From assembly GCA_014360655.1 (NCBI GenBank), contig JACIXC010000006.1:62001-126000 (forward strand): a stretch of DNA of 64,000 nucleotides. Reading direction: 5' to 3'. The notes beneath the pieces are model-generated. The model was not told where the DNA came from, ran no database searches, and saw nothing but the letters and a program-made list of their open reading frames with translations. This DNA comes from Actinomycetota bacterium (lineage in GTDB: Bacteria > Actinomycetota > Geothermincolia > Geothermincolales > RBG-13-55-18). The translations under genes and the position numbers were made by a program. Within the stretch, counting starts at the first letter, position 1, and the number at the start of each line of letters is the position of its first letter. Positions 25,431-57,660 of this stretch are shown here, in pieces.

Positions 25431-25828
25431 CGCATTACGCATGCACAATGCGGTAGAAGTTTCAATCCGCGCCCCACGCGCGGGGGGCGACAGTCCATCA
25501 TAAGATTCCCTTAAATAAGAAAGGGTTTCAATCCGCGCCCCACGCGCGGGGGGCGACACGGTTGGAGGCGATATGAGGGTGTTGGTGGTGTAGTTTCAAT
25601 CCGCGCCCCACGCGCGGGGGGCGACATGAGAGGCGTCGGGACGGTCGTCGCATTATCGGAGTTTCAATCCGCGCCCCACGCGCGGGGGGCGACCCCTTGC
25701 GAAAGCGTTGTTCGATTATCTGAGCCTGTTTCAATCCGCGCCCCACGCGCGGGGGGCGACGTACTTGCCGCCTGGATATGGTGGCGGGACAGGAAGTTTC
25801 AATCCGCGCCCCACGCGCGGGGGGCGAC

Positions 25829-25863
25829 CCGTGGAGTTTCATGGCAATATGCCAGTCACGGTG
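25829..25863 (-). repeat. duplicated CRISPR spacer A, first copy
   Basis: A 35-bp spacer beginning CCGTGGAGTTTCATGGCAAT on the plus strand. An identical spacer occurs at 26164-26198, five units closer to the leader. The flanking spacers differ, so this is not a block duplication. Confidence 0.95.
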
Positions 25864-26163
25864 GTTTCAATCCGCGCCCCACGCGCGGGGGGCGACAGTT
25901 CAATTATCCCACGGGCGTGGCCTGTGACGGGTTTCAATCCGCGCCCCACGCGCGGGGGGCGACCCCATTCCCTCGGCCCGCCAGCCTGGGATCATGTTTC
26001 AATCCGCGCCCCACGCGCGGGGGGCGACTGCCTCTGCGGATGGCCTGCGCCACGAGGGCACAGGTTTCAATCCGCGCCCCACGCGCGGGGGGCGACGCGT
26101 GTGATCATCATGGCCTGGGAAGACACATCGGTTTCAATCCGCGCCCCACGCGCGGGGGGCGAC

Positions 26164-26198
26164 CCGTGGAGTTTCATGGCAATATGCCAGTCACGGTG
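26164..26198 (-). repeat. duplicated CRISPR spacer A, second copy
   Basis: Identical over 35 bp to the spacer at 25829-25863. Confidence 0.95.
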
Positions 26199-26939
26199 GT
26201 TTCAATCCGCGCCCCACGCGCGGGGGGCGACATTATCAGGGTTTAATCCTTGGTGATCCTTTATTGGTTTCAATCCGCGCCCCACGCGCGGGGGGCGACC
26301 CGGCGTCCTACCCACTTACTCTATTTGATTGTCGTTTCAATCCGCGCCCCACGCGCGGGGGGCGACCCGAGCCGGATGGGGAGGCCGGCGCGGACGAACT
26401 GGTTTCAATCCGCGCCCCACGCGCGGGGGGCGACATGCCCAGGGGACTGATTTAGTATCCATTTACTGTTTCAATCCGCGCCCCACGCGCGGGGGGCGAC
26501 GGTTTACCTGAATCTTGGGTGCAAAGGCTCCAATAGTTTCAATCCGCGCCCCACGCGCGGGGGGCGACGGTGATCCACCCCACCCGGCTTATAGGCCTCA
26601 ATGTTTCAATCCGCGCCCCACGCGCGGGGGGCGACCGCCGCCATGGTGCGCCTGGTCGATCCCACCAAGGTTTCAATCCGCGCCCCACGCGCGGGGGGCG
26701 ACGCTTGCGTTCCGTGGCCCGCGAGATGGCCACGCAGTTTCAATCCGCGCCCCACGCGCGGGGGGCGACCAGGCCGACCAGCTGTACGCCACCATGAGTG
26801 AATTGTTTCAATCCGCGCCCCACGCGCGGGGGGCGACGCCATTGAAGCGCTGGGCGTACCACAAGCTGGGGGTTTCAATCCGCGCCCCACGCGCGGGGGG
26901 CGACTTAAAGGAGGTGAAAGACATGCCCTTCGACAAGGA

Positions 26940-26972
26940 GTTTCAATCCGCGCCCCACGCGCGGGGGGGGAC
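26940..26972 (-). repeat. variant CRISPR repeat (position 30 C to G)
   Basis: On the plus strand the repeat ends GGGGGGGGAC instead of GGGGGGCGAC. It is one of only two repeat variants noticed, both in the leader-distal fifth of the array. Confidence 0.9.
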
Positions 26973-27951
26973 TCCACTGCCTGCTCGTAGGTTATGTTCT
27001 CCTTCTGGTTTCAATCCGCGCCCCACGCGCGGGGGGCGACTGATTGTCAAGGTTCATGGTGTAATCCCCATCGCATGTTTCAATCCGCGCCCCACGCGCG
27101 GGGGGCGACGTTGCTATAGTCGGCGACGTAGATATAGGTTCCGTGTTTCAATCCGCGCCCCACGCGCGGGGGGCGACTTATAACCATTAACAAAAAGTCG
27201 CCAATTTGAGTTGTTTCAATCCGCGCCCCACGCGCGGGGGGCGACGTTAATTTGTCGCGCTTTTGAAAAATTTTTCGGAGTTTCAATCCGCGCCCCACGC
27301 GCGGGGGGCGACTTGCAATTATCTCCGCAAGCTCCTGCCGTCGCTGGTTTCAATCCGCGCCCCACGCGCGGGGGGCGACATTCGATACCGCCCCTTCCCC
27401 TGCCAAAAGTCAGGGTTTCAATCCGCGCCCCACGCGCGGGGGGCGACCTATTTTGTGGTTGGTGGAGGCGGGAGGAATCGGTTTCAATCCGCGCCCCACG
27501 CGCGGGGGGCGACATGGCTGTAGGGTGGGTTCCCACGCCGTTTATTGTGTTTCAATCCGCGCCCCACGCGCGGGGGGCGACACTCTTCCACCTCGGAGAT
27601 GGGAAGTCTGTAAATGTTTCAATCCGCGCCCCACGCGCGGGGGGCGACCAATACGCCGATGTTTCCTGCTACTTCCATTATCTGTTTCAATCCGCGCCCC
27701 ACGCGCGGGGGGCGACGCGATCCCTCATCTTCTTCCCCTGTTTCGCAGGTTTCAATCCGCGCCCCACGCGCGGGGGGCGACTAGTGACTCGGAGAACTAG
27801 CTGCTTGATCTTGTTGTTTCAATCCGCGCCCCACGCGCGGGGGGCGACACCCAAGCCCCTGCGCGGCCGGGCAGGCGAGGAGAGTTTCAATCCGCGCCCC
27901 ACGCGCGGGGGGCGACTCTCTGGCGGGTACATCTGAATTGCTGGCACCTTA

Positions 27952-27984
27952 GTTTCAACCCGCGCCCCACGCGCGGGGGGCGAC
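27952..27984 (-). repeat. variant CRISPR repeat (position 8 T to C)
   Basis: The plus strand reads GTTTCAACCC instead of GTTTCAATCC. The change lies in the part that becomes the crRNA 8-nt 5' handle, so this unit's crRNA would have an altered handle. Confidence 0.9.
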
Positions 27985-30900
27985 TTGCCTTGGATTCAAT
28001 TTCATCTATCATGAGAAAGTTTCAATCCGCGCCCCACGCGCGGGGGGCGACCTGTCTCAGGAGGAAGCCTTCCAATGGGCCCAAGGTTTCAATCCGCGCC
28101 CCACGCGCGGGGGGCGACGATGGTGCCCCAGCTGATATACACGCGCCCGCCGGTTTCAATCCGCGCCCCACGCGCGGGGGGCGACGCGCCTGGGATTGCC
28201 GGGCAGGATATCTTTCCAGGTTTCAATCCGCGCCCCACGCGCGGGGGGCGACAGCCGGAACAGGCGCGGTATGGCATGCGCGTTCATGTTTCAATCCGCG
28301 CCCCACGCGCGGGGGGCGACCCACGGCGGTAAACAGTTCGCAACTGGAATTCCGCGTTTCAATCCGCGCCCCACGCGCGGGGGGCGACCTATGTCGCCCC
28401 TATAGGGGCCACACAGGTAAATGTTTCAATCCGCGCCCCACGCGCGGGGGGCGACCTTAACTTCAAAAAATGTCCCGTCTTCCTCTACCGTTTCAATCCG
28501 CGCCCCACGCGCGGGGGGCGACTTACGGAAGCTCGATGTGTTGCAGATGGGTACAATGTTTCAATCCGCGCCCCACGCGCGGGGGGCGACGCTGGCGACG
28601 GACAGAAAACTACAGGTAAAAATCGTTTCAATCCGCGCCCCACGCGCGGGGGGCGACCAGGTCGGCGTGAGTTCGATGCTGCCCGTACAGATGTTTCAAT
28701 CCGCGCCCCACGCGCGGGGGGCGACCTGAGGATGGTGATGGTCATGTACGTGCTCAAATTGTTTCAATCCGCGCCCCACGCGCGGGGGGCGACTCCGGAT
28801 GTGTCGCCCTGGCCGCGCGCATCATGTAGTTTCAATCCGCGCCCCACGCGCGGGGGGCGACGGATGTATGGGCAACCCCTCTGACATGTAAATGTTTCAA
28901 TCCGCGCCCCACGCGCGGGGGGCGACTTACCCGTTCCGGTCGAGTTTCTAACTGGTCTGAGTTTCAATCCGCGCCCCACGCGCGGGGGGCGACGCTGCCG
29001 CTTCGCCATCCGAGGTCTTCATTGAGGTTTCAATCCGCGCCCCACGCGCGGGGGGCGACCAACGGCCTGTCCACCGATAAAATGCCCCAGCTGGTTGTTT
29101 CAATCCGCGCCCCACGCGCGGGGGGCGACCTTCTCCGCCGTACAACTTTGGCAAGGAATATAGTGTTTCAATCCGCGCCCCACGCGCGGGGGGCGACGGT
29201 GGGTACCAGAATCTGATATCGTGGGCGATAGGTTTCAATCCGCGCCCCACGCGCGGGGGGCGACTCCCTCGCCGTCACAATCTCCGTTGGCAGCCTCAAG
29301 TTTCAATCCGCGCCCCACGCGCGGGGGGCGACCCCAGGTAGTCGGCCACATAGGGCTCCCGCACCGGTGTTTCAATCCGCGCCCCACGCGCGGGGGGCGA
29401 CTGGAGAAGGAGCGAACGTGTTGAGCCAGCCTGATGTTTCAATCCGCGCCCCACGCGCGGGGGGCGACTCCGCTGCCCGTAGCCCAGCAGCCGCAGCCCC
29501 TGTTTCAATCCGCGCCCCACGCGCGGGGGGCGACGGGAGGTGAGTTATGAGCGGCAAGGTGGTCATGTGGTTTCAATCCGCGCCCCACGCGCGGGGGGCG
29601 ACCGCCTGGGCCATTCGGGAGAGTCGGCTAAAAGGCGTTTCAATCCGCGCCCCACGCGCGGGGGGCGACCATCACCACTATCACTTCGCCCGCGACTTCG
29701 TGAAGTTTCAATCCGCGCCCCACGCGCGGGGGGCGACGCGGGGGGGATTGGGAAAATCTGCAAGCACTTTGCAAGTTTCAATCCGCGCCCCACGCGCGGG
29801 GGGCGACTCTACTATAGCCTGTTGGTTGAGGCGGTTTACATGTTTCAATCCGCGCCCCACGCGCGGGGGGCGACGCTCGTGGAATGGGCGGAGGCTGTGG
29901 CGGACTGGCTGTTTCAATCCGCGCCCCACGCGCGGGGGGCGACATTATAGCGTGGTGAAAAAAGGTAACCACTAGGTTGTTTCAATCCGCGCCCCACGCG
30001 CGGGGGGCGACCCCCTCCTCGGTCTTCCTGTGGCAAAATATCGTCCGTTTCAATCCGCGCCCCACGCGCGGGGGGCGACTGGGAAATAAGCACGGCCGAT
30101 TACGAGATACCGGGGTTTCAATCCGCGCCCCACGCGCGGGGGGCGACGTTTTTGGATGTTCTGAAGGTTCAGGGATTAGGGGTTTCAATCCGCGCCCCAC
30201 GCGCGGGGGGCGACTTAACTTATCTGATTTTTCTTAGGATAAAATTCAGGTTTCAATCCGCGCCCCACGCGCGGGGGGCGACGCTAAGGCGGAGGCGGTC
30301 AAGGCTAACCGCGCCTTGTTTCAATCCGCGCCCCACGCGCGGGGGGCGACATAGGCCCATCCTGGCCCTGCCGGCCCTGGATGAGTTTCAATCCGCGCCC
30401 CACGCGCGGGGGGCGACCCGCGGGCAAGGCCATGAGGCTGGCCGCCGTCGATGTTTCAATCCGCGCCCCACGCGCGGGGGGCGACCGCCGTTCGTGCACT
30501 CAACACTGTGGCCGATCACGTTTCAATCCGCGCCCCACGCGCGGGGGGCGACCGCCGCGCTGCTGGAGGAGCTGGAGGAGAGGGAAGTTTCAATCCGCGC
30601 CCCACGCGCGGGGGGCGACTCCCCAGATCGATGAGGTCCATGGTGCCCCAACTGAGTTTCAATCCGCGCCCCACGCGCGGGGGGCGACCTCCGGGATAGC
30701 CTCCAGGCCCTGGAGAAGCGCGCGGTTTCAATCCGCGCCCCACGCGCGGGGGGCGACGCTCCAGGTAACCCCATGGTTTGGGTGCACCCCGGTTTCAATC
30801 CGCGCCCCACGCGCGGGGGGCGACCACGGGCGGGTCAATGCGTATCGCCGGCACCTTCGTTTCAATCCGCGCCCCACGCGCGGGGGGCGACCCCCGTGGC

Positions 30901-33900
30901 GCCAGATGGTACTATTGTTGGCCTGGTTTCAATCCGCGCCCCACGCGCGGGGGGCGACGGGTCGTCCAATCGCCCTTTGCGCCATGACTTATTGTTTCAA
31001 TCCGCGCCCCACGCGCGGGGGGCGACGATCTTGCTCGCGTAAACGTCATCGAATCCCACTCAGTTTCAATCCGCGCCCCACGCGCGGGGGGCGACGCCGA
31101 TAGCCCGTATGCGCAGAAGCAGTTAGGGTTTCAATCCGCGCCCCACGCGCGGGGGGCGACCTGCTGGCCGGGCTGCTTGTTGGCGGCGGAGCGAGGTTTC
31201 AATCCGCGCCCCACGCGCGGGGGGCGACAACCCAGTCAGGAAGCCTATGGTAGGCCACGAGCGTTTCAATCCGCGCCCCACGCGCGGGGGGCGACCCGAC
31301 TACCGGGAGGGTAAATGCCGCAGGGTGATGGTTTCAATCCGCGCCCCACGCGCGGGGGGCGACGCCCGGGGCATGAGGGTCTACCGCGAGATGGCAGTTT
31401 CAATCCGCGCCCCACGCGCGGGGGGCGACGCTGTGCCGCGCCTGTTCAGGCTCAATGGCATGGTTTCAATCCGCGCCCCACGCGCGGGGGGCGACGCCTA
31501 ATGCGGCTGATGGTGTGGGCGGGCCTACGCACGGTTTCAATCCGCGCCCCACGCGCGGGGGGCGACAGGCAAGCCTGGCAGAGCTGGAGGCCGGCCGGAG
31601 AGTTTCAATCCGCGCCCCACGCGCGGGGGGCGACGGTCGGCCATAGTGATCTGAAAGGCGCTTCGCTGGTTTCAATCCGCGCCCCACGCGCGGGGGGCGA
31701 CCTCCAGACGATAGCGTCGACGAAGTGCGGGCCCATGTTTCAATCCGCGCCCCACGCGCGGGGGGCGACGTTGTACCTGGGGCCCTTGGGCCTTACTCGC
31801 CAGGTTTCAATCCGCGCCCCACGCGCGGGGGGCGACGCCGGCGATCTGGATGCGCGGGAACCCTCATCGGAGTTTCAATCCGCGCCCCACGCGCGGGGGG
31901 CGACATCGCTCCATGGGCTAGTTACGCCGCTCCGCGTGTTTCAATCCGCGCCCCACGCGCGGGGGGCGACGTTCGAGATCGAACACCCGGTCCCGGATGT
32001 CCTCGGTTTCAATCCGCGCCCCACGCGCGGGGGGCGACCCCGGGGCAGGGCTCGGGCTCGGGTTGAGGAAAGTTTCAATCCGCGCCCCACGCGCGGGGGG
32101 CGACTCCGCCAGCGATAGACTATGCGCCGTACAGTACAGGTTTCAATCCGCGCCCCACGCGCGGGGGGCGACGACTGGCTTCAGGCCGGCGAAAAACCAC
32201 AGCCCGGTGTTTCAATCCGCGCCCCACGCGCGGGGGGCGACGGTGAGCGAGTAAGCATCTGCATACCATTCCGTGTTTCAATCCGCGCCCCACGCGCGGG
32301 GGGCGACTTGGGAATAAGCGGAAACTATGTAGTAATCGGGATAGTTTCAATCCGCGCCCCACGCGCGGGGGGCGACTTCATACCGAAGCAGGTCACCTCG
32401 TGCCCCGCCTCGTTTCAATCCGCGCCCCACGCGCGGGGGGCGACCGCGAGAACAAGTACCGATAGCTCGATTCACTGGTTTCAATCCGCGCCCCACGCGC
32501 GGGGGGCGACGCAGCTGAGGGTGTGGATCTCCGGCCGTACGAAGTTTCAATCCGCGCCCCACGCGCGGGGGGCGACGCGGTATGGCGCGCGGGGGCTCAT
32601 GTGCCGGGGAGTTTCAATCCGCGCCCCACGCGCGGGGGGCGACGATGATTATCGTCCACTCTACAGCCTAGTTCTGCGTTTCAATCCGCGCCCCACGCGC
32701 GGGGGGCGACTCCCCGCGGGGATGGGATCGGTAAACAAGGTTCTTCTGGTTTCAATCCGCGCCCCACGCGCGGGGGGCGACCCTGGTACTCTCCCAGCCG
32801 CTGGCTCGCTCCCCTGTTTCAATCCGCGCCCCACGCGCGGGGGGCGACCCGTTCTGCTGGGTGGAACCCTGACCGAGTCAGGGTTTCAATCCGCGCCCCA
32901 CGCGCGGGGGGCGACCTCGGTGGGGTCGAGTTGGGCCAGCGACTGCACGTGTTTCAATCCGCGCCCCACGCGCGGGGGGCGACGCGGCTGTGACTGTGGG
33001 CACCACCGTGGTCGAACTGTTTCAATCCGCGCCCCACGCGCGGGGGGCGACGTTGGCGGCTACCGCCTGCGAGTAAGTAATCTCGTTTCAATCCGCGCCC
33101 CACGCGCGGGGGGCGACAACGATCCCGATCGATAAGGCGCTGCTTTTCCGGTTTCAATCCGCGCCCCACGCGCGGGGGGCGACTGAGAAAGGGCGGAGTG
33201 AGCGACAGGAAAAACGTTTCAATCCGCGCCCCACGCGCGGGGGGCGACTCGTGGGCATCGATAAGAAGCCCGGCCCACAGGTGGTTTCAATCCGCGCCCC
33301 ACGCGCGGGGGGCGACTTCTACCTCGCCATGCACCAGGCGTGGCAGCTTGGTTTCAATCCGCGCCCCACGCGCGGGGGGCGACGAATATGGTGTGCCGAT
33401 AACTGCAGCGTATGTCGTTTCAATCCGCGCCCCACGCGCGGGGGGCGACCTGCTGCCACTGAAGTGGGCGAGCTGGGCGAAGTGTTTCAATCCGCGCCCC
33501 ACGCGCGGGGGGCGACTAGAGCGCCAGAACAAGGCCGTTCTCGTATGAGGTTTCAATCCGCGCCCCACGCGCGGGGGGCGACACCAGGCGGTATTGAAAG
33601 GATGCTAGATCGATAAGGTTTCAATCCGCGCCCCACGCGCGGGGGGCGACTATAGGCGAGCACTCGTAAGACCGCTCAACTTGGGTTTCAATCCGCGCCC
33701 CACGCGCGGGGGGCGACGCAGGTAGGCCTCGATTGCCGCTATGCCGGCATTGTTTCAATCCGCGCCCCACGCGCGGGGGGCGACGGCCACATTGCACCAG
33801 TTATTGGCCATGTTCCAGGTTTCAATCCGCGCCCCACGCGCGGGGGGCGACTGTCCAGGTGCGGGTTGTCCTGTAGGCGCGCGGGGTTTCAATCCGCGCC

Positions 33901-35266
33901 CCACGCGCGGGGGGCGACCTCCCCTCCTGCTTCTGGCATTTACCCACCTCCTTGGTTTCAATCCGCGCCCCACGCGCGGGGGGCGACGTTCGAGGCGTGG
34001 CACAATGGCTCGGGCGTACACGTTTCAATCCGCGCCCCACGCGCGGGGGGCGACCAGCTCAGGGCGACGCTTACCTGGCTGTTGCACGCGTTTCAATCCG
34101 CGCCCCACGCGCGGGGGGCGACGGCCAGGGCAGTAAAGTATGTGCCATCCCGCCTTGTGTTTCAATCCGCGCCCCACGCGCGGGGGGCGACGGTGTACGG
34201 GGTAGTGTTGGAGCCGGATACGGTAGTTTCAATCCGCGCCCCACGCGCGGGGGGCGACTGGTGCAGGCCAGGCGATAGACCGCGGCTGGTGGTTTCAATC
34301 CGCGCCCCACGCGCGGGGGGCGACTTAGTGCGACTTATGTCAGTAATCCAGCCATCGGTTTCAATCCGCGCCCCACGCGCGGGGGGCGACACCCCGCGTA
34401 CTCCGGTATCTTGGCGAAAAATGGTTTCAATCCGCGCCCCACGCGCGGGGGGCGACGGCAGAGGATACGATGCGAAGGGTGTTGAAAAAGGTTTCAATCC
34501 GCGCCCCACGCGCGGGGGGCGACCTCAATCAGCGGGTGCATGCCCTAAAGGCTGCACAGTTTCAATCCGCGCCCCACGCGCGGGGGGCGACGGGATACGG
34601 ATACTCGCGGGGATCAACGTAAGGGTTTCAATCCGCGCCCCACGCGCGGGGGGCGACCCGCGGCAACGGGTGCGATGTAGCGCATAGAATAGTTTCAATC
34701 CGCGCCCCACGCGCGGGGGGCGACCCGCGAGTGGGCTACGAAGATGAAACGGTTACTAAGTTTCAATCCGCGCCCCACGCGCGGGGGGCGACTTGCCGAT
34801 GCGCCGAGAACCTGATCATCACGGAAAGTTTCAATCCGCGCCCCACGCGCGGGGGGCGACCCGTGTCGAAGGCCTTCTGAACGGCTTCGGTCACGTTTCA
34901 ATCCGCGCCCCACGCGCGGGGGGCGACTCGGCCAGGCCGCCGTAGATCTCAGTAGTCGTGAGTTTCAATCCGCGCCCCACGCGCGGGGGGCGACGAGCTC
35001 TTCGTGGTGCGTGCGCGTGCCCGCCCAGTTTCAATCCGCGCCCCACGCGCGGGGGGCGACTTGAGGGTACCATCGATGGCACGTGAAGACGATCCGTTTC
35101 AATCCGCGCCCCACGCGCGGGGGGCGACTCGGGCACCTTTCGACCATCGCCTTCGCGGGATCGAAGTTTCAATCCGCGCCCCACGCGCGGGGGGCGACAT
35201 GGATTGCGGCGCCTAACTATTCTGCTTCCTAGTGTTTCAATCCGCGCCCCACGCGCGGGGGGCGAC

Positions 35267-35299
35267 CCCTGTCGGGTATCATCATGCCTTCGTCGAGGT
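35267..35299 (-). repeat. duplicated CRISPR spacer B, older copy
   Basis: A 33-bp spacer beginning CCCTGTCGGGTATCATCATG on the plus strand, identical to 36944-36976, which is 25 units nearer the leader. Confidence 0.95.
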
Positions 35300-36943
35300 G
35301 TTTCAATCCGCGCCCCACGCGCGGGGGGCGACGTCCCGTCGCAGGCTATGCCGTAGGGATAATAGGTTTCAATCCGCGCCCCACGCGCGGGGGGCGACTT
35401 TTTACGCGGTGCCCTCAGCTGGCGAAGCGTGGTTTCAATCCGCGCCCCACGCGCGGGGGGCGACAACCTGGACAGCGTGCAGACGGTAGATGTATATCGG
35501 GTTTCAATCCGCGCCCCACGCGCGGGGGGCGACGTTGCCAGGGCTCGAGTTCGAATCGGCAGCCAGTTTCAATCCGCGCCCCACGCGCGGGGGGCGACCG
35601 TTCAGCGCCGCGATGGCGGCCTGGCAGGCACGGTTTCAATCCGCGCCCCACGCGCGGGGGGCGACTTCGCAGATGCCGCTAAGCGCCTGCTACGGCGCGA
35701 GTTTCAATCCGCGCCCCACGCGCGGGGGGCGACGGCCCGCACCGCCAGCCCCGCAGCCCAAGCAGGGTTTCAATCCGCGCCCCACGCGCGGGGGGCGACC
35801 CAGGCGCTCGATCTCCTCCCAGCGGCGGTCATGTTTCAATCCGCGCCCCACGCGCGGGGGGCGACTCCCGCGGGGCTATACGCGCTCGCGGGGGCTTTCC
35901 CGTTTCAATCCGCGCCCCACGCGCGGGGGGCGACGCTCACAGGCCAAAACCTCCCCCCGCAACACGGGTTTCAATCCGCGCCCCACGCGCGGGGGGCGAC
36001 CCTTATCCCGCCTCCATTCCCGCATAGCCTGTTGGTTTCAATCCGCGCCCCACGCGCGGGGGGCGACCCAGGATAAACAGGCGTAGGCCGGCCAGGTAGG
36101 CCGTTTCAATCCGCGCCCCACGCGCGGGGGGCGACTCAGTACCATCGTAAATACCTCCAATAATCAACTGTTTCAATCCGCGCCCCACGCGCGGGGGGCG
36201 ACCTGCGAGGAGCATGAGCGGCGACGGGCCAAAGAGGTTTCAATCCGCGCCCCACGCGCGGGGGGCGACGGAGCAATACGCTTGTAAAACGGCCCACAGA
36301 CATGTTTCAATCCGCGCCCCACGCGCGGGGGGCGACGTGGAGGAGCCTCGACAATCTACGACTGGCTCGTTTCAATCCGCGCCCCACGCGCGGGGGGCGA
36401 CAGGTTTCCGAGCGGCGCTCCAACAACTTTCCCATGTTTCAATCCGCGCCCCACGCGCGGGGGGCGACTATGTTCCTGCGCCAACTTACGGCGTTTTTCA
36501 CCGTTTCAATCCGCGCCCCACGCGCGGGGGGCGACCTGCCCCTGGGCCGGGGAGTGCACAGCCCCCGAGTTTCAATCCGCGCCCCACGCGCGGGGGGCGA
36601 CTGGGACATGGGCGCAAAGATACAATATCTCAAGCAGTTTCAATCCGCGCCCCACGCGCGGGGGGCGACCGTTTTTCCTCGGTATCTCGATGTAGGCCGT
36701 TCGGTTTCAATCCGCGCCCCACGCGCGGGGGGCGACGGCCTGGCGGTAAGCCTGGTCCAACCAGGCCAGGCTGTTTCAATCCGCGCCCCACGCGCGGGGG
36801 GCGACGCCCGGTGAGGGTGGAGCCGCCGGTGAGGGTGGCGTTGTTTCAATCCGCGCCCCACGCGCGGGGGGCGACCAGCTCGAGCTCTCTGATTTTAGTT
36901 ATCAATCGCTGTTTCAATCCGCGCCCCACGCGCGGGGGGCGAC

Positions 36944-36976
36944 CCCTGTCGGGTATCATCATGCCTTCGTCGAGGT
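36944..36976 (-). repeat. duplicated CRISPR spacer B, newer copy
   Basis: This is the second spacer from the leader end and matches the spacer at 35267-35299 exactly. It appears to record a recent repeat acquisition from the same protospacer. Confidence 0.95.
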
Positions 36977-37076
36977 GTTTCAATCCGCGCCCCACGCGCG
37001 GGGGGCGACACAACCTGATGGGCCGCGTGGACAACGATCCAGCGTTTCAATCCGCGCCCCACGCGCGGGGGGCGAC

Positions 37077-37264
37077 CGCCTTTCTGTCATACCATTATTA
37101 CAACTGCGAAATCGAATGATAAATCGCGAAACCTGTAATAAAATGATACAACGCTATCTTTATTGTCAAGGTGCAACGAGATAAAGTCTTTTCTATAGAG
37201 GAAATCAGGACTACGCGAACCCCCCAACGGGTTTCTGGTCGCTATAGGTTCGCGAGAGGCTATT
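37077..37264 (-). promoter_or_regulatory. CRISPR leader
   Basis: A 188-bp AT-rich non-coding segment between the cas2 stop codon and the first repeat, the standard place of a type I-C leader. It contains an 8-bp inverted repeat, CGCGAACC (37214-37221) and GGTTCGCG (37247-37254), 25 bp apart, which could bind an integration host factor or form a structure. It should hold the promoter for leftward pre-crRNA transcription and the Cas1-Cas2 integration signals. Confidence 0.85.
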
Positions 37265-37558
37265 TCATATAACAAGAGGGCCCTCCGGGTCATAAGACGG
37301 TTTGGCTCCCACATGCTCAACGCGATGACGCCAATTGTTTCCCAAGAAATAAAAGCGCAAGCTGTCTTCTTCTTTATCTATCTCATCTATCAGGCGTTGC
37401 CTGAACGCAGTCCATTGGGTCATATCGACAAGACATTCAAAGACCGATTTTTGAACACGTTGACCCATATTCTCACACTTCTTAGCGACTCGTCGAAGCC
37501 TTTTCCGCCCCTCCGGCGTTTCAGTATTTACATCATAAGTGACAAGCACCATCATCAT
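37265..37558 (-). CDS. cas2: CRISPR-associated endoribonuclease Cas2 (type I-C)
   Basis: A 97-residue Cas2 with the MVLVTYDVNT N-terminal strand bearing the conserved Asp, RVQKSVFECLVD in the middle, and DSLRFYFLG near the end. It forms the adaptation complex with Cas1. It starts 3 bp after the cas1 stop (TGATGG), so translation is coupled. Three ATG codons are in tandem; the third (37552) gives the usual family N-terminus. Confidence 0.95.
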   Translation of the reverse strand: MMMVLVTYDVNTETPEGRKRLRRVAKKCENMGQRVQKSVFECLVDMTQWTAFRQRLIDEIDKEEDSLRFYFLGNNWRHRVEHVGAKPSYDPEGPLVI

Positions 37559-37561
37559 CCA

Positions 37562-38596
37562 TCATCTCCACACGAATGGGGGATAACCTTCAATATCGCC
37601 CCTCAAGAATCTTGCAAACAGCATGGCTTGAACGTGCGGCAGCAGACCTAAGGCAATCCTCTCTCCTAAGAATGGGTGATATATCTCTTCCTGCTTCCTT
37701 TTCTGATAAGCAACCAGAACCGTCTTGCGGGTCTCATCGTCCATCATCACCGCTCCTGACTCCGTCTTTCTAAAACCCTTGCCCTTTATCTGTTGGCGGT
37801 TGACGAGGGACAAAGCGAGACGGTCAGCGAAAAACGGGCGAAGCTCCTCCATAAGGTCTAAAGCCAAGCCCGGTCTACCTGGCCTATCTCTATGAAGAAA
37901 TCCTACTGCTGGATCCAGACCGACTGCCTCAAGTGAAGAGGTGACATCATGCAATACCAAAGCATAAATAAACGAGAGAAGCGCGTTCATGTTGTCAAGT
38001 GGAGGTCTCCGGGTACGCTGTTTGAAGAAAAAATCCTCCTTATTGGCAACAATAAGTTGGTTAAAAACACCGAAATAGGCACGAGCTGCGTCACCTTCAT
38101 ATCCCCTTACCGTATCAAGGGGGAGAAGACCATCCTTCAGATTATGAGATATATGTGTAAGGTATCGCACTGTTTCTTTGAGCTGCGAAACATCGACGCA
38201 ATCTTGATGGTCACGCTGGGCACGTAAAAGCACAACACGGCAATTCGCGACCTTCGCAAGGACAATATTTCGGGCTACCTGAGAAGAAAAGGCAGGGTCA
38301 TCTGCTCGCCGATACTGCTCCCTTCTAAGAAGAACATTTCCTGAAACGGGACCATGTACTCTTGCCCAGAATCTGCCGTATTCACTGAGAAAAGAGATGG
38401 ACACATTTCGTTCACCGCACATCTGCATGAGCGGCGGGCTGCATGAAACCTGACCAAAACAGACAATACCATCAAGGGTATGGACTGGAACCCGTAGCTT
38501 TGTTTCCTGTCCTACACGCACAACTACCGTTTCTCCGTCCCGGGAGAGGTATGCTCCCTGACTGGTTACATACAAAGTGTTAAGAAGCCGTTTCAT
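37562..38596 (-). CDS. cas1: CRISPR integrase Cas1 (type I-C)
   Basis: A 344-residue Cas1, the integrase that inserts new spacers at the leader end. KRLLNTLYVTSQGAYLSRDGETVVV is the family N-terminus. The metal site is visible as YEGDAARAYFG (Glu), GFLHRDRPGRPGLALDLMEE (His and Asp). The ATG at 38596 has GTGAGGAAG immediately upstream; the in-frame GTG at 38605 is possible. It overlaps the cas4 3' end. Confidence 0.95.
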   Translation of the reverse strand: MKRLLNTLYVTSQGAYLSRDGETVVVRVGQETKLRVPVHTLDGIVCFGQVSCSPPLMQMCGERNVSISFLSEYGRFWARVHGPVSGNVLLRREQYRRADDPAFSSQVARNIVLAKVANCRVVLLRAQRDHQDCVDVSQLKETVRYLTHISHNLKDGLLPLDTVRGYEGDAARAYFGVFNQLIVANKEDFFFKQRTRRPPLDNMNALLSFIYALVLHDVTSSLEAVGLDPAVGFLHRDRPGRPGLALDLMEELRPFFADRLALSLVNRQQIKGKGFRKTESGAVMMDDETRKTVLVAYQKRKQEEIYHPFLGERIALGLLPHVQAMLFARFLRGDIEGYPPFVWR

Positions 38597-39299
38597 CTTC
38601 CTCACCCGATTCCAAGATCAGCCTGGATAGGTATGAGTTAACACTACGTTTCCTGCTAGTTGCTTTGGGAAGGCAAACATCTATTAGTGAACATTTTTCA
38701 CACTTCTTTGAATAATATGCTTTAGGTGTGCATGCACGCGCGACCAATTCATGCAACCTTTCAGATGCCACCTCTGTTTTTTTTCGCAATTCTTTATCGA
38801 ATGCCAATTCCAACCGCCGTACTGATTTGCCATAGTAAAGGGCACCCACTGGAATGGTGACCCCGAGCATCTCTTCGAGGCAAAGAGCTTGCGCACAAAG
38901 CTGAACCTCGTAGCCCTCTTCGCGGCGCAAGCTACCACGTTTGTATTCCACCGGGAAAGGTTGCCAAAGGCCCGGTACTCCTTCCAGTGTTGTTCCCTCT
39001 GCGAAAAATTCGCCATCACGAGCCATGATATGGGATTCTGTTAGGCGATGAAACTCCACAACGTCCGCCTTGCCGGTTACACCAAGCCTGAGCGACCTCA
39101 ACGGTAGACCTCGGACTATGCGTATATCCCCACGTGACTCCGTCTCCGAGGCATGCGTTCTTTCGTGGAGAATGCCCCCTTCGATGGTGAAAGGGTTGTC
39201 CTCCCATGCGCCCTCGATGTAGATCAGCGCCGCTCTCCGCTCGCAGAACAATAGATGCTGCAGAGCGGAGAGCGGAATGAGATCATCCTCAGCATACAT
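38580..39299 (-). CDS. cas4: CRISPR exonuclease Cas4 (type I-C)
   Basis: A 239-residue Cas4, the PD-(D/E)xK nuclease that trims prespacers and selects the PAM during adaptation. LIPLSALQHLLFCERRAALI carries the first of the four cluster Cys, PVEYKRGSLRREEGYEVQLCAQALCLEE is the nuclease core, and KKCEKCSLIDVCLP supplies the other three Cys for the Fe-S cluster. It begins 24 bp after cas7. Confidence 0.95.
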   Translation of the reverse strand: MYAEDDLIPLSALQHLLFCERRAALIYIEGAWEDNPFTIEGGILHERTHASETESRGDIRIVRGLPLRSLRLGVTGKADVVEFHRLTESHIMARDGEFFAEGTTLEGVPGLWQPFPVEYKRGSLRREEGYEVQLCAQALCLEEMLGVTIPVGALYYGKSVRRLELAFDKELRKKTEVASERLHELVARACTPKAYYSKKCEKCSLIDVCLPKATSRKRSVNSYLSRLILESGEEDETAS

Positions 39300-39323
39300 C
39301 TTCCAACGGGATAAAGAAAACGC

Positions 39324-40361
39324 TTATACCACCATTACATTTCCCGGGACATCATTCCAGACCAGTTCCGCCTTCCCGCCTTCTCCGGTTACGACGAAAC
39401 CTGCAGATACACCGCTCGGCAAAGCGCTCTTCTTGAAAGAAACCGTGTAATCATCGAAGGAACGGGGAGCATCTACGCCATCTTTTTTCTTGATCTCGAT
39501 GAGTTCAAACAACTTGTGGGCAGGCGCACATCCTAGCATAGCCTGCTTCTCGCGTTGCACCTCATCTGAATCTGTTCCCACATGCTTGAACACAAAGATG
39601 GGCTCGCGAACTGACATCAATCCCTTGCTAGAGGATCGATCATGCTCGAACATCTTGAGCAAGGCTTCCCAGAGAAGGGTTAGATCATCATCTGTGAACC
39701 CAGTACCGGTGTCTTCCTGCGCAAGATAGGCACTGATGAATCCCTTCAAGACGAAGAGACCATAAGGGATCAGCGCTTTCCTTCCCATGGTACGGAGCTC
39801 ATCTTCTGGTTGCATCTTTTCCCATTCTTCGAACTCTTTCGACCCAACGTCTTTGCCTTTAATATCGTTATCCGCGACTGCCATCCTGGTTATCGAGATT
39901 TCTAGTGGTAATATTGGGTCGACAGAGCGAGCAAAAGATAATTGCACTGGACCACGTATTTGTCCTGCATTTGGGCCTGTAGACAGGACGGCGCCAAATG
40001 TTCTAACATCATAAAAATTCTTGCACAGCCATTTTCCTGCAGCTCTTGCCTTATCAAGTGTCGTCTTCCATTTATTATTCTCAAAAGGCGGCATTCCACT
40101 GGTTTCTTCATGGGCTCTTGCTATTTTAGTGTTGAGATTTGTTGCATGCTCTATGAAGATTGCGAAGGGCATCTTATTATCTCTAGCTATTTGTACATAG
40201 TTTCTCACCCTTCTTTTAAGCGCAACATCCGACACTAGTCCACGCATGTCTTGAGGATCGATACGGGGGGCATTTCCTGCATCAGGATCTCCATTGGGAT
40301 TTCCGTTCTCGCAATCGAACAGAAGCACGAATTCATAGCGGTTCTTTATCGGGTTATTCAT
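39324..40361 (-). CDS. cas7: Cascade backbone protein Cas7 (Csd2)
   Basis: A 345-residue Cas7/Csd2 that coats the crRNA spacer in the I-C surveillance complex. The N-terminus [50 protein letters not shown] is diagnostic. AAAAGGAGGT lies 5 nt before the ATG at 40361; the GTG at 40364 is less likely. It overlaps the end of cas8c by 8 bp. Confidence 0.95.
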
Positions 40362-42138
40362 CACTGACCTCCTTTTCCGATTCGAAAGTTTCCTTCTTGT
40401 TTTTTCTCATATCAGCGATTTGCTGATAGTAGCCTAGTGCGAAAAGGCTCTGTTCTTCCAGGCTCAATGTCTTAGGAATACCTGTTTTCAATCCATCCCA
40501 AATTTCCGTTATCTTTTCTTCATACCAGTGAGCCAATCCAGGATCCAGCTTGTTGAGGTGAAACTGGCTTGTGCGTGTAAGGCGCCCCAGAACGAGAGAA
40601 GGCGTAACACTGGCAGCTGCATAATACCTCTGCACAATGCCAGCGCCCACATCTCCTAAGGCACTGCGCTGTAACCTGGCAAGAATCGCCATCAACCTGC
40701 CACATTGATAAGCTGGATTTGGATATCCATCATTCAGGTCCGGTTTAATCAAATCTGCCATTTCATCACCTCCACCTTGTCGATATTGCCTTATAAGATA
40801 AGCTTTGATGAGTCCAATTCGGGCATGGTTAAACGGCTCATCTTTTATAATGTCTATTCTCATTCTTTCAAGAGAATATGCTAAGGCTGATCTGGGTATT
40901 GGTTCATTGTTGACGGCAGAACGCCATAATTTTGCAACCAAGGGTGATGACAAGGGTGATGATTTTGCAACCGAGGGTGGTCGGAGATCGCTAGGATTGC
41001 GCACCATCCCGCCAAGTACCGAGAAGAACTTGGGCGATTTTGCTAAGGCATCCCCACCAGATCTTATTATTGATAAATCATCAAACCATTTCCTTATATT
41101 CTCGACAAGATTTTCAAAGCGGCCTTCCATCCAGTCACGAACCATAACCCTTCCGCTCGCCCCGGATAATGTAATCGCGTAATAGTAGTTATCCTGAAGA
41201 TCCGGTCTTCGCCCTGACCTTATGCTTGCCAGCAGTTCCCTCGCACGCTCCTGAGCTTGTATTTCCTGTTCATCATGTCCTTCCTCCAGCCAGAATAAGG
41301 GATCATCTTCCCTTTCTACCCTCCCCTTGAACCAGTGAACGATTTTCGTTCCGGCAAGTTGTTGGCTATGATGCTCAATCAAGTAGTTAAGGGCTGCCCT
41401 GTAGGCTGAGGCTGCATTCTCTGACACTGCCGCATTTTCAGATTGTTTAAGGCCGTATGACTTAAACGCATCCTTGTCGAAACCAATTAATACATCACCC
41501 TGTTTGCTTCCCCCCACATCTGCTAAGCCTTTTACCTTGGGGTGAGTCATAGCGGGCTCAACGCCCTCACCAGTGACGAGACAGACCATCGTCTTAGTCC
41601 CTTTTTTCTCCATGGTGATGCTCAAGTGGTGTATACGCCACCAATCATGCCACAGATTAGATTCAAGAGGGAAAACCCCAGATATACGAAAGGTGATTTT
41701 ATCGGTTTCCCTTGCTCTATATTCCTCTAGCGCCTTACGTATTGCATCAAGAGAGGTATTATCGGAAATAACTTCCGCTGCCTTGCCCAATTCAGGCATG
41801 GCAGTGCTTGCCTCGCGCAGTAGAGAGACGAAATAGTCATGCTTATCCCTTGTTTTCGGATTGTCAGCCGCTTTCCCGTAGAGCGCCACGACATTCGCGG
41901 TTTCCGCCAGGAAGTGGCTTCTTCTCTCCTTGCCCTGCATAAAAGACGGGTTATATTCAGGACATCTTTCAAAGAGTTGCCCCCGGTTATTTCTCGATCC
42001 CACATCCCCCAACTCGATGACATTCACAAATCTTCCCTCATCGTCGATCACTATTGCCCAACGAATGTACTTAGGTGCAAAACCTGGCTCTGTTACCAGG
42101 TTATGTTCTTGCGCGAATTTCACCAGTTGTTCCAACAT
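40354..42138 (-). CDS. cas8c: Cascade large subunit Cas8c (Csd1)
   Basis: A 594-residue Csd1/Cas8c, which recognises the PAM and recruits Cas3. Family features are [23 protein letters not shown] near the N-terminus, [42 protein letters not shown], and the C-terminal [18 protein letters not shown]. In I-C systems the Cas11 small subunit is made by internal initiation in the 3' part of this gene; I could not pick that start with certainty. It starts at a TAATG overlap with cas5. Confidence 0.95.
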
Positions 42139-42893
42139 TAGATCCTACCTCCGTCTAACTTAAGGACTTCTTCGTCGTTATCATATTCAGGAATCTCCAT
42201 GACGCCGTTCACTACTTTTGCACGGAAAAGGCTGATCTTGGGCGCATCAGTAGAAGAGCCGGGTTTTGACAGGTCAAAGACGTCGTACAGCATCAGACCA
42301 ATATCGATGTTTACAGGCACAGGTTCAGCTTGTATGGAATCAGGTTCCACAAGCTCAAAGTAGGCCGGGAATTCACGACATCCGAGATACGGCTGGTATA
42401 TGCACTTCCCGTTGAGTGCACGCCTGCGAAACTGAGCCTCCATGGCCTTAAGGCGATCTTCATAACCGGGCCAGGGCCTGATCTCAGCATGCAGCCTATA
42501 GCGCACATCCTTCAAAGCCATGGTTTGCCTTTGAGTCCTTCCCTCGTCGTCTCTACCAAGCATTTCTTTGGTGCCGTCAGCAAGTATCGGCTTAGGTTCC
42601 TTTTTACCGGAAATCCAGTCAAGGATTGTTCTTTCGCTCGGTGCCTTGTTCTTTACCTCGTTGCGCCGTAATGCGATGTATTTCGGCTCGGACAGCATCT
42701 CGACTTTCTTTACCTGCCATCGGAACTCAGCCTTTGAAGGGTCCCGGTTCGGTTTACAGTAAATCGCATCGAATATGGCGCGGGCTGCCGATGGGGTGAT
42801 CACCGGATAGCTGAATCGTTCTACCTTTAATTCGGGGCGTGTAAAGCAGGCAAACTCCCCCCATACCTCCAGTATCTGGTTTGTTGGTCGCAT
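42138..42893 (-). CDS. cas5c: Cas5c/Cas5d, crRNA-processing subunit
   Basis: A 251-residue Cas5. In type I-C it replaces Cas6, cuts the pre-crRNA and caps the 5' handle. NQILEVWGEFACFTRPELKVERFSYPVITPSAARAIFDAIYCKP is the conserved N-terminus; LGCREFPAYFE is a second family motif. An in-frame ATG at 42911 is open, but AAAAGGAGG lies between it and the ATG at 42893, so the downstream ATG is the true start. Confidence 0.95.
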   Translation of the reverse strand: MRPTNQILEVWGEFACFTRPELKVERFSYPVITPSAARAIFDAIYCKPNRDPSKAEFRWQVKKVEMLSEPKYIALRRNEVKNKAPSERTILDWISGKKEPKPILADGTKEMLGRDDEGRTQRQTMALKDVRYRLHAEIRPWPGYEDRLKAMEAQFRRRALNGKCIYQPYLGCREFPAYFELVEPDSIQAEPVPVNIDIGLMLYDVFDLSKPGSSTDAPKISLFRAKVVNGVMEIPEYDNDEEVLKLDGGRI

Positions 42894-42915
42894 AAAAGAC
42901 CTCCTTTTCATAAAG

Positions 42916-45249
42916 TCAGCCTATAAGGCATTCCATTCCTTGCGGCGGGTTTAGCCCTGTTTCAAGGCTGTAATGTTCTCCGTTAAGATAAATGAACCAT
43001 TCTTCTGAATAGCTGTCCCTGCCGAGAGGGACGGGCTCGATATAGGATAGTAACGGGTCATCAAACCCGGGCTTGAATAACCCCACAGCGTATGGCCTCG
43101 CTTTCGTTATCCACTTGGCATTCAAGCCGGCCTTTCGCACTTCTTCTTCCAACTCGTTAAATACGGCAGGCTCATAAGGAACGAGTATGTTGATCGCTGG
43201 CTTCTCAATGACATGATAGCTTTCGGATACTTTTACGAAATCACGCAGGTTAATGCCTTCAAGTAGATCTTCCTTCTTCCGTTCCGGCCTCGCGATATCG
43301 TAGAGCTCCCGGTAGTATTCTTCGAATATACGAGGTGAATTAATGTCCAGACCATGATCGCCGTACTTAGCGAGGAGTATCTTCATCACCTCGGTAGCTT
43401 GCCTGTAAGCACCATCCGGGTATATGTTTTCCCCCTCGGTGCTTTCAGGCAAGAACAGCACCACCTCGCCCTCCTCAAGCCGGCCATTCCTGTTGCAACG
43501 ACCAGCAGCCTGGGCAATCGAATCCAAGGGACCCAAAGCTCTGTATACGAGCGGGAAATCAATGTCGACTCCTGCTTCAACACATTGCGTGGAAACAAGG
43601 AGGCAAGGCTCTCCTTTATCAAGGCGCAGACGCACTTCCTTTATGACTTCTTGTCTGTGTGCAGGGCACATGTTAGTGGAGAGGTGAAATACGTCTTCTA
43701 CTCCCATCCTGATGAGCTCATCATAAAGCGTAAGGGCATGCCTTTTTAGATTTACTATACAGAGCACCTGACCATGTGCGTCGTTTGCCAGCTCTTTCGC
43801 CAGATCATTCCAGGATACCGTTTCCCTTATATCCTGCGGCCACCTTGCCCTGTTGCGGCGCGCCCGTTCATATAGCTTCAGTTCTTCAGGAACTATCTCC
43901 CTTGGGTTCCAACCACGCACGTAATGCTTCCTTATGTGCGCATCGAGGTGGGAAAAAGCTGGTTGGGTCGCAGTTGAAAACACTATTGTTGAATTGTATC
44001 TCTCGGACAGGTGTGATAATGTCGCGAGGGTAGGTATCACAAGGCCAATGGGTAATGTCTGCACTTCATCGAATAAGATCACGCTATTAGCCAATCTGTG
44101 TAGCTTACGGCAGGCTGAAGGTCGATTAGAAAAGAGAGACTCGAGGAACTGGACACTCGTGGTCACGATAATCGGTGCATCCCAGTTCTCGGTGAGCAGC
44201 CTTTCTTGCTGATGAAATTCTTGCTCATCATCGGAAGTAACGCCATCAACTGCTCTTTTGCCTCCACGTATGCCGGATAGGCTATGATGCTCAAGGACAT
44301 ATCTTCTGGCGTCGCGGGCATCTATCGCAGATGCCAGTGCTTTGCGATATTCAGAAACCGTCTGATCGATTATGCTCAGATAAGGAATCACCGTGATTAT
44401 CCGTTCCAAGTTATTATGCAAAGCATGCTTGACAGCGAAGGCCAACATGCTCAAGGTCTTTCCCGTTCCCGTTGGGGCCGTGAGAGTGAACAGGCCATGT
44501 TTGTTTTCTGCTGCAGCGAGGCAAGCATGCAGCAGGTCTGATCGCATTTTTCGAACAGAAGGTGAGGCTCCAGACTTCATGGAGAGTTCGCCAAGATATC
44601 CAAGTAGATGTTCCAAAAGCGTGTCTGGGTTAAGCTTCAAGCCGGGTTCACTATAGCTCCTGGCACCCTTTTCTTGTGCATTAAAATGCGCCTCTGTTTC
44701 GATATAATCCGCATCCACAAGGGTGGAGAAGAGCATGCGGATATCGAGCATACCAGCTATTTTGGAATCATCGGAATGTTTGTATATAGATTTACCGATT
44801 TGTTCTTTAGCGGGTAGCTCGAGGCCATCCTTCTCCAGCCTCTCAAGCAGATTTCTCATATCAGGCTCGGATAGAACCAGACCCTCGGTATTATTGATTT
44901 CTAACTTCGCAGGATCAAGGTCGCCCAAGGAGCTCTTCGAGGCCCTTTGAAGGCCTTTATGGTGTCCCTGGATGGAAAGTGCCGCTGCAATGCCCGACAT
45001 TTGATACTTTGATAAGGCTATCCATGCGCCGTTCGACCAGTGGTCGACTCCCCTAATCTCTCCGCGCAACCTTTGCTGAAACTTATCGCCATATTTCCCT
45101 ATATCATGCAATATTCCTGCGATATATGCCTCTAAAGAAGCATCGAACGCTTCAGCATATTTGGAGGCTCTCTCAGCCACTAGCCGAAGATGCGATTTTA
45201 ATGGATCAACTTCACCGACAGAGTTTGAGGTATGTGCTAGATATTCCAT
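42916..45249 (-). CDS. cas3: CRISPR helicase-nuclease Cas3
   Basis: A 777-residue single-chain Cas3 that unwinds and degrades target DNA. The HD nuclease has H20, HDIGK (H48-D49) and downstream His residues (GVDHWSNGAW, GHHKG). The SF2 helicase has Walker A APTGTGKT (258-265), DEVQ (394-397), VFSTATQ and QAAGRCNRNGR. It is the first gene of the operon: 22 bp separate it from cas5, and its upstream DNA is the 144-bp element also found beyond the insertion sequence. Nothing looks broken. Confidence 0.96.
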   Translation of the reverse strand: MEYLAHTSNSVGEVDPLKSHLRLVAERASKYAEAFDASLEAYIAGILHDIGKYGDKFQQRLRGEIRGVDHWSNGAWIALSKYQMSGIAAALSIQGHHKGLQRASKSSLGDLDPAKLEINNTEGLVLSEPDMRNLLERLEKDGLELPAKEQIGKSIYKHSDDSKIAGMLDIRMLFSTLVDADYIETEAHFNAQEKGARSYSEPGLKLNPDTLLEHLLGYLGELSMKSGASPSVRKMRSDLLHACLAAAENKHGLFTLTAPTGTGKTLSMLAFAVKHALHNNLERIITVIPYLSIIDQTVSEYRKALASAIDARDARRYVLEHHSLSGIRGGKRAVDGVTSDDEQEFHQQERLLTENWDAPIIVTTSVQFLESLFSNRPSACRKLHRLANSVILFDEVQTLPIGLVIPTLATLSHLSERYNSTIVFSTATQPAFSHLDAHIRKHYVRGWNPREIVPEELKLYERARRNRARWPQDIRETVSWNDLAKELANDAHGQVLCIVNLKRHALTLYDELIRMGVEDVFHLSTNMCPAHRQEVIKEVRLRLDKGEPCLLVSTQCVEAGVDIDFPLVYRALGPLDSIAQAAGRCNRNGRLEEGEVVLFLPESTEGENIYPDGAYRQATEVMKILLAKYGDHGLDINSPRIFEEYYRELYDIARPERKKEDLLEGINLRDFVKVSESYHVIEKPAINILVPYEPAVFNELEEEVRKAGLNAKWITKARPYAVGLFKPGFDDPLLSYIEPVPLGRDSYSEEWFIYLNGEHYSLETGLNPPQGMECLIG

Positions 45250-45267: not shown

Positions 45268-45411
45268 TCATCCGACAGCCTTATCTTGAAAATGTTCATT
45301 CTGGTATCGTTTAACTTATGATTTTCTTATACATCATGGCAGTGACAACATTATGGCAGTGGCAAGATTGATTTTTCAGAAGGTGAAGTTGCAATTTGCA
45401 GGCCTTTTCTG
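45268..45411. repeat. 144-bp direct repeat, copy 1 (cas3-proximal)
   Basis: It matches 46683-46826 at all but three positions by eye (45313, 45366, 45403). Its right end directly abuts the left end of the IS256-family element. It lies about 18 bp upstream of cas3 and probably contains the cas promoter region. Confidence 0.93.
45332..45365 (-). promoter_or_regulatory. 17-bp tandem motif upstream of cas3
   Basis: On the minus strand TTGCCACTGCCATAATG is followed directly by TTGTCACTGCCATGATG (15 of 17 identical), then TATAAG. Head-to-tail spacing of 17 bp, about 1.6 helical turns, suggests a direct-repeat operator or paired activator sites controlling cas transcription. A second copy lies at 46747-46780 in the other direct repeat. 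Confidence 0.6.
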
Positions 45412-46682: not shown

Positions 46683-46826
46683 TCATCCGACAGCCTTATC
46701 TTGAAAATGTTCATTCTGGTATCGTTTGACTTATGATTTTCTTATACATCATGGCAGTGACAACATTATGGCAGTGGCAAGGTTGATTTTTCAGAAGGTG
46801 AAGTTGCAATTTGCAGGACTTTTCTG
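46683..46826. repeat. 144-bp direct repeat, copy 2 (IS-distal)
   Basis: Second copy of the element at 45268-45411, starting directly at the right end of the insertion sequence. Past it the sequence diverges into unrelated DNA before the stress-protein gene. Confidence 0.93.
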
Positions 46827-46998
46827 CATTCGGGATCGAGTTTTAGCAGTTCATCCTGGTTAAGACGCAAATATAAACCAATGAAGGGTGAAGTAGCCTG
46901 TGGAAATGTGGTATGTTTCGTTAGGGAAACTCTCTTCGGATGCTGCCGGCTTTGCGGAGAGGATTCCCGAAAAAGATCTTGATGAGGGGAGTAAGGGT

Positions 46999-57541: not shown

Positions 57542-57569
57542 AAAAAACCCGACCGTTTACACGATCGGG
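57542..57569 (-). terminator. intrinsic terminator inside the surface-protein leader
   Basis: On the minus strand CCCGATCG, a TGTAAA loop, CGGTCGGG, then TTTTTT. It lies about 235 nt upstream of the surface-protein start codon and about 100 nt downstream of the minus-strand promoter at 57668-57696. Confidence 0.88.
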
Positions 57570-57660
57570 CCGGTTTCACCACTCGCTCCCCGCAACCCAG
57601 GCGACCAGCTTGAGGTTACGGATCCTCGCTTTCCCCATCGTACGCTCGCCTATTCGATTG
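57570..57660 (-). ncRNA. candidate structured leader or small RNA, class unknown
   Basis: Between the promoter and the terminator on the minus strand lies about 90 nt with base-pairing potential: CCGTAACC and GGTTGCGG pair over 8 positions around a loop containing AAGCTGGTCGCC, and GGCGA near the 5' end can pair with TCGCC. Either it is a riboswitch-like attenuator for the surface-protein gene or an independent RNA of about 120 nt. I could not match it to a known class. Confidence 0.5.

What the first reader, a model, noticed from the sequence alone, without database searches (positions are those of the whole stretch)
25459..37076. Very large, nearly invariant type I-C CRISPR array (173 repeats)
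Manual counting gives 173 repeats and 172 spacers over 11.6 kb with only two single-base repeat variants. Most I-C arrays are far shorter. Such length with uniform repeats suggests a very active or strongly selected adaptation module, all seven cas genes being intact. The 172 spacers are a long record of this lineage's mobile elements.
Basis: partly seen in the sequence, partly recalled or inferred. Interest (0 to 1): 0.65.

Follow-up and report, generated by a model that had tools for sequence, protein, structure and literature searches.

The report
Long type I-C CRISPR array
An environmental actinobacterium carries an unusually long (173-repeat) but otherwise ordinary bacterial immune memory bank of a well-known type; it is in the top few per cent for its kind but not a record, and its one mild oddity is a repeat sequence predicted to fold poorly.

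Summary
There are 173 copies of a 33-bp repeat and 172 spacers (170 distinct) at 25459-37076, with only two single-base repeat variants. It is a complete type I-C locus: cas3-cas5c-cas8c-cas7-cas4-cas1-cas2 on the minus strand, then a leader at 37077-37264, then the array. It is the only array with this repeat in a genome that also has III-B-like and I-D-like systems. The length is large but within the known range: published I-C arrays have median 30, third quartile 56 and maximum 318 spacers (PMC5575924). No spacer matches its own genome. No exact protospacer was found, so the PAM could not be tested. Homology ties single spacers to a phage large-terminase gene and to a prophage early region in a relative. 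These weaken the predicted Cas5c hairpin and create a rival one, and both changes are in every repeat, so the surviving array was built on the altered repeat. The two private variants suggest a young, fast-turnover array. Verdict: a real, large, otherwise ordinary member of a known kind.

The parts
25459..37076 (-). CRISPR array: 173 repeats of 33 bp, 172 spacers (170 distinct); read (crRNA sense) on the minus strand, leader end at 37076, trailer end at 25459
   Evidence: direct count; whole-genome pattern search 173 copies, all here
26940..26972 (-). variant repeat (one substitution, private)
27952..27984 (-). variant repeat (one substitution, private)
37077..37264 (-). leader, 42% G+C, with TTCGCGAAC ... 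GGTTCGCG ... TTTCGCG motifs shared with the leaders of Actinomycetota relatives and more distant I-C loci
   Evidence: alignment of 10 I-C leaders; composition
37265..37558 (-). cas2 (97 aa)
   Evidence: TIGR01573, PADLOC Cas2c
37562..38605 (-). cas1 of type I-C (347 aa); metal-binding E, H and D motifs present
   Evidence: TIGR03640 512.9 bits; PDB 8d3p/8d3l
38580..39299 (-). cas4 (239 aa)
   Evidence: TIGR00372, PADLOC Cas4c
39324..40364 (-). cas7/csd2 (346 aa)
   Evidence: TIGR02589
40354..42138 (-). cas8c/csd1 (594 aa)
   Evidence: TIGR01863; PDB 8gaf
40354..40761 (-). probable internal cas11c (135 aa) inside cas8c: ATG at 40761 behind GGAGGTGAT
   Evidence: start and ribosome-binding site; C-terminal part matches Cas11c chains 8g9s_H and 7kha_K; expression inferred
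42138..42911 (-). cas5c/cas5d (257 aa), pre-crRNA processing endonuclease
   Evidence: TIGR01876; PDB 8g9t
42916..45249 (-). cas3 (777 aa), HD and helicase motifs intact
   Evidence: PADLOC Cas3c 628 bits; PDB 8zns/8g9u; motifs read
36670..36703 (-). spacer W6: encodes RTAYIEIPRKN, a large-terminase motif
   Evidence: 30 of 33 bases identical to the terminase gene of Streptococcus phage Javan25 (E 0.1); a spacer of the genome's I-D-like array (C27) matches the same gene about 120 bp away
33919..33954 (-). spacer W47: covers a ribosome-binding site and start codon; near match to a prophage early region in G293:C2, cut off by the contig end, beside a phage integrase
25259..25458 (.). trailer flank; terminal repeat is perfect (no degenerate end repeat); 16-bp G+C-rich stem just beyond it

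Best explanation
[quoted passage not shown] Cas4-Cas1-Cas2 adds phage-derived spacers at the leader (37077-37264), copying the first repeat each time, so the repeats stay nearly identical. The array is transcribed on the minus strand and cut by Cas5c into crRNAs. Cas5c, Cas7, Cas8c and Cas11c form the surveillance complex that recruits Cas3. The length reflects acquisition running ahead of deletion in a lineage exposed to many phages. Anatomy, gene content and count are shown here; acquisition, processing and interference are inferred from homology to studied I-C systems.
For: Exact count and uniqueness. Full cas set, motifs and PDB relatives. Shared leader motifs. Two private substitutions in 173 x 33 bases give a mean repeat age of about 3.5e-4 substitutions per site, younger than the published median turnover (spacer deletion 374 times the per-site mutation rate, PMC11472070) would predict (about 15 changes expected). 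No self-targeting spacer in three own-genome searches that scored 28/28, 40/46 and 34/34 candidates, as expected if interference works. Spacer pairs with homologous targets exceed chance: 4 pairs at score 14 or more, a number reached by 0 of 120 simulated sets. Terminase and prophage targets.
Against: No full-length protospacer and no PAM. The repeat's canonical hairpin is predicted to be weak. No expression data. Repeat uniformity could also come from recombination or purifying selection.
Confidence: 0.88

Rival explanations
1. The array is long because interference is impaired: the altered repeat folds poorly, crRNAs are made inefficiently, and spacers accumulate without being tested.
For: Two substitutions (G16 to U, U23 to C) relative to the canonical repeat of G262 and L034 lower the predicted canonical hairpin from 0.84 to 0.20 in spacer context; lowest but one of 20 I-C repeats surveyed.
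Against: No self-targeting spacers among 172, which untested acquisition should produce; the six basal pairs of the canonical stem can still form; all cas genes are intact.
Confidence: 0.07
2. The number is partly an assembly product: loops around the two duplicated spacers, or strain variants, expanded or merged the array.
For: Two exact repeat-spacer-repeat duplicates; 35-contig assembly.
Against: No exact repeat longer than 102 bp, 170 distinct spacers, array in the middle of a 166-kb contig; duplicates at about 1% are below the 3.3% of duplication candidates in CRISPRCasdb (PMC11472070).
Confidence: 0.04
3. Repeat uniformity and length reflect recombination (segmental duplication or gene conversion between repeats) rather than rapid acquisition.
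For: Two duplicated spacers; a five-spacer block duplication in the I-D-like array of the same genome; perfect terminal repeat.
Against: 170 of 172 spacers are distinct and no spacer block is repeated in this array, so duplication did not make its length; conversion could still have homogenised the repeats.
Confidence: 0.1

Closest known systems
Type I-C (Dvulg) CRISPR-Cas, Bacillus (Alkalihalobacillus) halodurans and Nitratidesulfovibrio vulgaris
   Same: Seven genes in the same order, Cas5c in place of Cas6, 32-33 bp repeat ending ATTGAAAC or ATTGAAAT, adjacent leader and array
   Different: 173 repeats; repeat has two substitutions that weaken the usual hairpin and change the first base of the presumed 11-nt handle from U to C
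I-C locus of Actinomycetota MAG STE_163 (L032 / G112, same family)
   Same: Cas1 78%, Cas7 86%, Cas2 94% identical; same gene order; related leader; cas genes likewise much lower in G+C than flanks
   Different: 12 repeats before the contig ends (truncated); canonical hairpin repeat
I-C locus of Actinomycetota MAG Ch49 (L033 / G176, same family)
   Same: Cas1 72% and Cas2 93% identical, array of 66 repeats, shared leader motifs
   Different: Cas3, Cas5, Cas7 and Cas8c only about 30-43% identical over partial lengths, so its effector module has a different history; canonical repeat
Very long arrays such as Haliangium ochraceum (587 spacers) and the longest I-C array in the survey PMC5575924
   Same: Single array well above 100 spacers
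   Different: This one is shorter than either

Membership tests
Type I-C CRISPR-Cas | cas8c/csd1 signature gene | tested here: met
   TIGR01863 299.5 bits, cut-off 218.7
Type I-C CRISPR-Cas | cas3-cas5c-cas8c-cas7-cas4-cas1-cas2 order and no cas6 in the operon | tested here: met
   the seven genes fill 37265-45249 with no room for another
Type I-C CRISPR-Cas | I-C specific Cas1 and Cas7 | tested here: met
   TIGR03640 512.9 bits and TIGR02589 311.4 bits, both above cut-off
Type I-C CRISPR-Cas | 32-33 bp repeat ending in GGATTGAAAC with leader next to cas2 | tested here: met
Type I-C CRISPR-Cas | stable repeat hairpin ending 11 nt before the repeat's 3' end | tested here: inconclusive
   six basal pairs possible, but predicted probability 0.16 alone and 0.20 in context; a rival hairpin competes
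Type I-C CRISPR-Cas | TTC-type PAM at protospacers | not testable with these tools
   no full-length protospacer found
Type I-C CRISPR-Cas | Cas5c cleaves pre-crRNA; crRNA-guided interference | not testable with these tools
   needs RNA-seq and interference assays
Exceptional (record) CRISPR array | more spacers than the published I-C range | tested here: not met
   172 against a maximum of 318 for I-C (PMC5575924)

The most novel reading that the evidence does not exclude
The whole 173-repeat array runs on a derived repeat in which the canonical I-C hairpin is replaced, in part or wholly, by one shifted three bases downstream (CCGCGC/GCGCGG). Cas5c would then cut at a different place, for example leaving an 8-nt AUUGAAAC handle instead of 11 nt, giving a processing variant of type I-C linked to unusual array growth.
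Probability: 0.07. Interest if true: 0.45.

Novelty: new member of a known kind. Interest (0 to 1): 0.24.

Why it matters
It is a rich, apparently young record of phage exposure for an uncultured actinobacterial family whose phages are almost absent from databases: 170 distinct guides that can assign future viral contigs to this host. The array-wide derived repeat offers a natural test of how much hairpin stability Cas5c needs.

Tried and rejected
Spacer matches in 50,697 phage records and 72,556 plasmids: the plasmid hits are other I-C arrays matching the repeat, not protospacers. Eight IMG/VR scans, seven of them for single spacers, merged two- or three-spacer patterns or spacer homologies and one with an integrase as bait: no true match; the single pattern hit, L064, was a hybrid of the merged pattern and is chance. 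Prophage terminases (PF03354) in the family: none. Prophage flanks in related genomes fetched and compared with all spacers: nothing beyond W47. Candidate self-target at C15:79061 rejected: it matches repeat plus spacer edge; a 20-base match at C24 is low complexity. The near match of spacer W76 to a Sphingobium phage was not pursued.

Full report
Observation. Counting by script gives 173 copies of GTTTCAATCCGCGCCCCACGCGCGGGGGGCGAC on the + strand, the first starting at 25459 and the last ending at 37076. 171 are perfect, two have one substitution (26940, 27952). The 172 spacers are 32-38 nt long and 170 are distinct. A search of the whole 2.97-Mb genome finds exactly these 173 copies, none on the other strand and none for the control pattern. 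The genome is 99.96% complete in 35 contigs and the array lies inside a 166-kb contig. The longest exact internal repeat is 102 bp.

What it is. On the minus strand lie cas3 (45249-42916), cas5c, cas8c, cas7, cas4, cas1 and cas2 (ending at 37265), then a leader and the array. The type-specific models for Cas8c, Cas7, Cas5c and Cas1c all exceed their curated cut-offs, PADLOC gives Cas3c, and the closest solved proteins are those of characterised I-C systems. Catalytic motifs are present on reading the sequences: Cas3 HD, Walker A, DEVQ and QAAGRCNRNGR; Cas1 E/H/D; Cas4 RecB motif and cysteines. An ATG at 40761 behind GGAGGTGAT probably starts Cas11c. The leader shares TTCGCGAAC...GGTTCGCG...TTCGCG motifs with other I-C loci, most clearly with two genomes of the same family. 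The closest Cas1 relatives are Actinomycetota MAGs that prove to be genomes of the same family, so the host is an uncultured actinobacterium.

How unusual is the length. In a published set of 164 I-C arrays the mean is 43, median 30, third quartile 56 and maximum 318 spacers (PMC5575924). A geometric distribution with that mean puts 1.8% of arrays at 172 or more, about three of 164. The longest array known in complete genomes has 587 spacers (PMC7145573) and a metagenome held 1,131 (PMC8026048). A search of 396 genomes of the phylum for one common I-C repeat form found at most 49 copies elsewhere, but that pattern covers only some repeats, and many neighbours' arrays are cut off at contig ends. 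So 'far longer than most' holds; 'exceptional' does not.

Repeat uniformity and age. Each acquisition copies the leader-proximal repeat, so uniformity is expected. The two private substitutions in 5,709 bases correspond to a mean repeat age of 3.5e-4 substitutions per site (95% range 0.4-12.7e-4); the published median deletion rate would predict about 15 (PMC11472070). This favours rapid turnover, but homogenising recombination or constraint on repeats are not excluded. The terminal repeat at 25459 is perfect, although trailer repeats are often degenerate (PMC8047081); the III-B-like array of the same genome does have a degenerate end repeat.

Targets. No full-length protospacer was found in phages, plasmids, IMG/VR pattern scans or related genomes, so the PAM is untested. 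Indirect evidence points to phages. Spacer W6 (36670-36703; W1 is leader-proximal) encodes RTAYIEIPRKN and resembles the terminase of Streptococcus phage Javan25 (weak by E-value). A spacer of the I-D-like array encodes LTEGKWA and resembles the same gene about 120 bp away, so two independent systems point to one gene. W47 resembles the early region of a prophage beside an integrase at the end of a contig of a relative. Spacer pairs with homologous targets within the array exceed chance, and W10 shares a target with a spacer of relative G176. No spacer matches the host genome.

An unreported feature. In crRNA sense the repeat is GTCGCCCCCCGCGCGTGGGGCGCGGATTGAAAC. A genome of the same class (G262) and L034 hold the canonical GTCGCCCCCCGCGCGGGGGGCGTGGATTGAAAC. 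The two differences break the upper stem and create a rival hairpin; predicted probability of the canonical hairpin in spacer context falls from 0.84 to 0.20. Of 20 distinct I-C repeats surveyed, only one other is as weak, and all 19 others keep the U at the first handle position. Since both changes are in every repeat, the surviving array was built after they arose. Cas5c is reported to recognise the hairpin plus 3' single strand and to cut at the hairpin base (PMC3890593). This could alter crRNA ends, but prediction alone does not show it, the lack of self-targeting argues against loss of interference, and the original Cas5d papers were not held.

Verdict. The finding is real and accurately counted; it is a large, complete and otherwise ordinary type I-C locus.

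Noticed in passing
window 25459-37076 (repeat, crRNA sense): Array-wide repeat differs by two bases from a canonical I-C repeat in the same class; predicted canonical hairpin probability drops from 0.84 to 0.20 in context and a rival hairpin appears.
   Followed up: partly
window 45268-45414 and 46683-46829: A 147-bp direct repeat (97% identical) flanks an IS256-family transposase gene (45442-46617) immediately upstream of cas3, far longer than a usual target duplication; the left copy keeps the presumed cas promoter region.
   Followed up: partly
window 37265-45249: cas genes are 48% G+C against 66% for the flanks; relatives' I-C operons are also low (45-49%), suggesting horizontal acquisition.
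   Followed up: partly
L056 (G000:C25) and L057 (G000:C14): The same genome has III-B-like (with CARF proteins) and I-D-like systems, each with its own cas1 and array; spacers B29 and C3/C8 overlap by 21 bases, so two systems target the same sequence.
   Followed up: partly
L057 array (G000:C14): A block of five spacers is duplicated in tandem (C2-C6 = C7-C11).
   Followed up: no
L033 (Ch49): Cas1 and Cas2 72-93% identical to the window's but effector genes only about 30-43%, indicating exchange between adaptation and effector modules.
   Followed up: no
window 57559-57643 (-): Cyclic di-GMP-II riboswitch (58.6 bits) upstream of a 1210-aa SdrD/SpaA-like surface repeat protein (53675-57307).
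   Followed up: no
L129 near 5970, L128 near 9700, L125 near 6040 (rev.): Solitary I-C-like repeats with no array in other genomes of the class, perhaps remnants of collapsed arrays.
   Followed up: no
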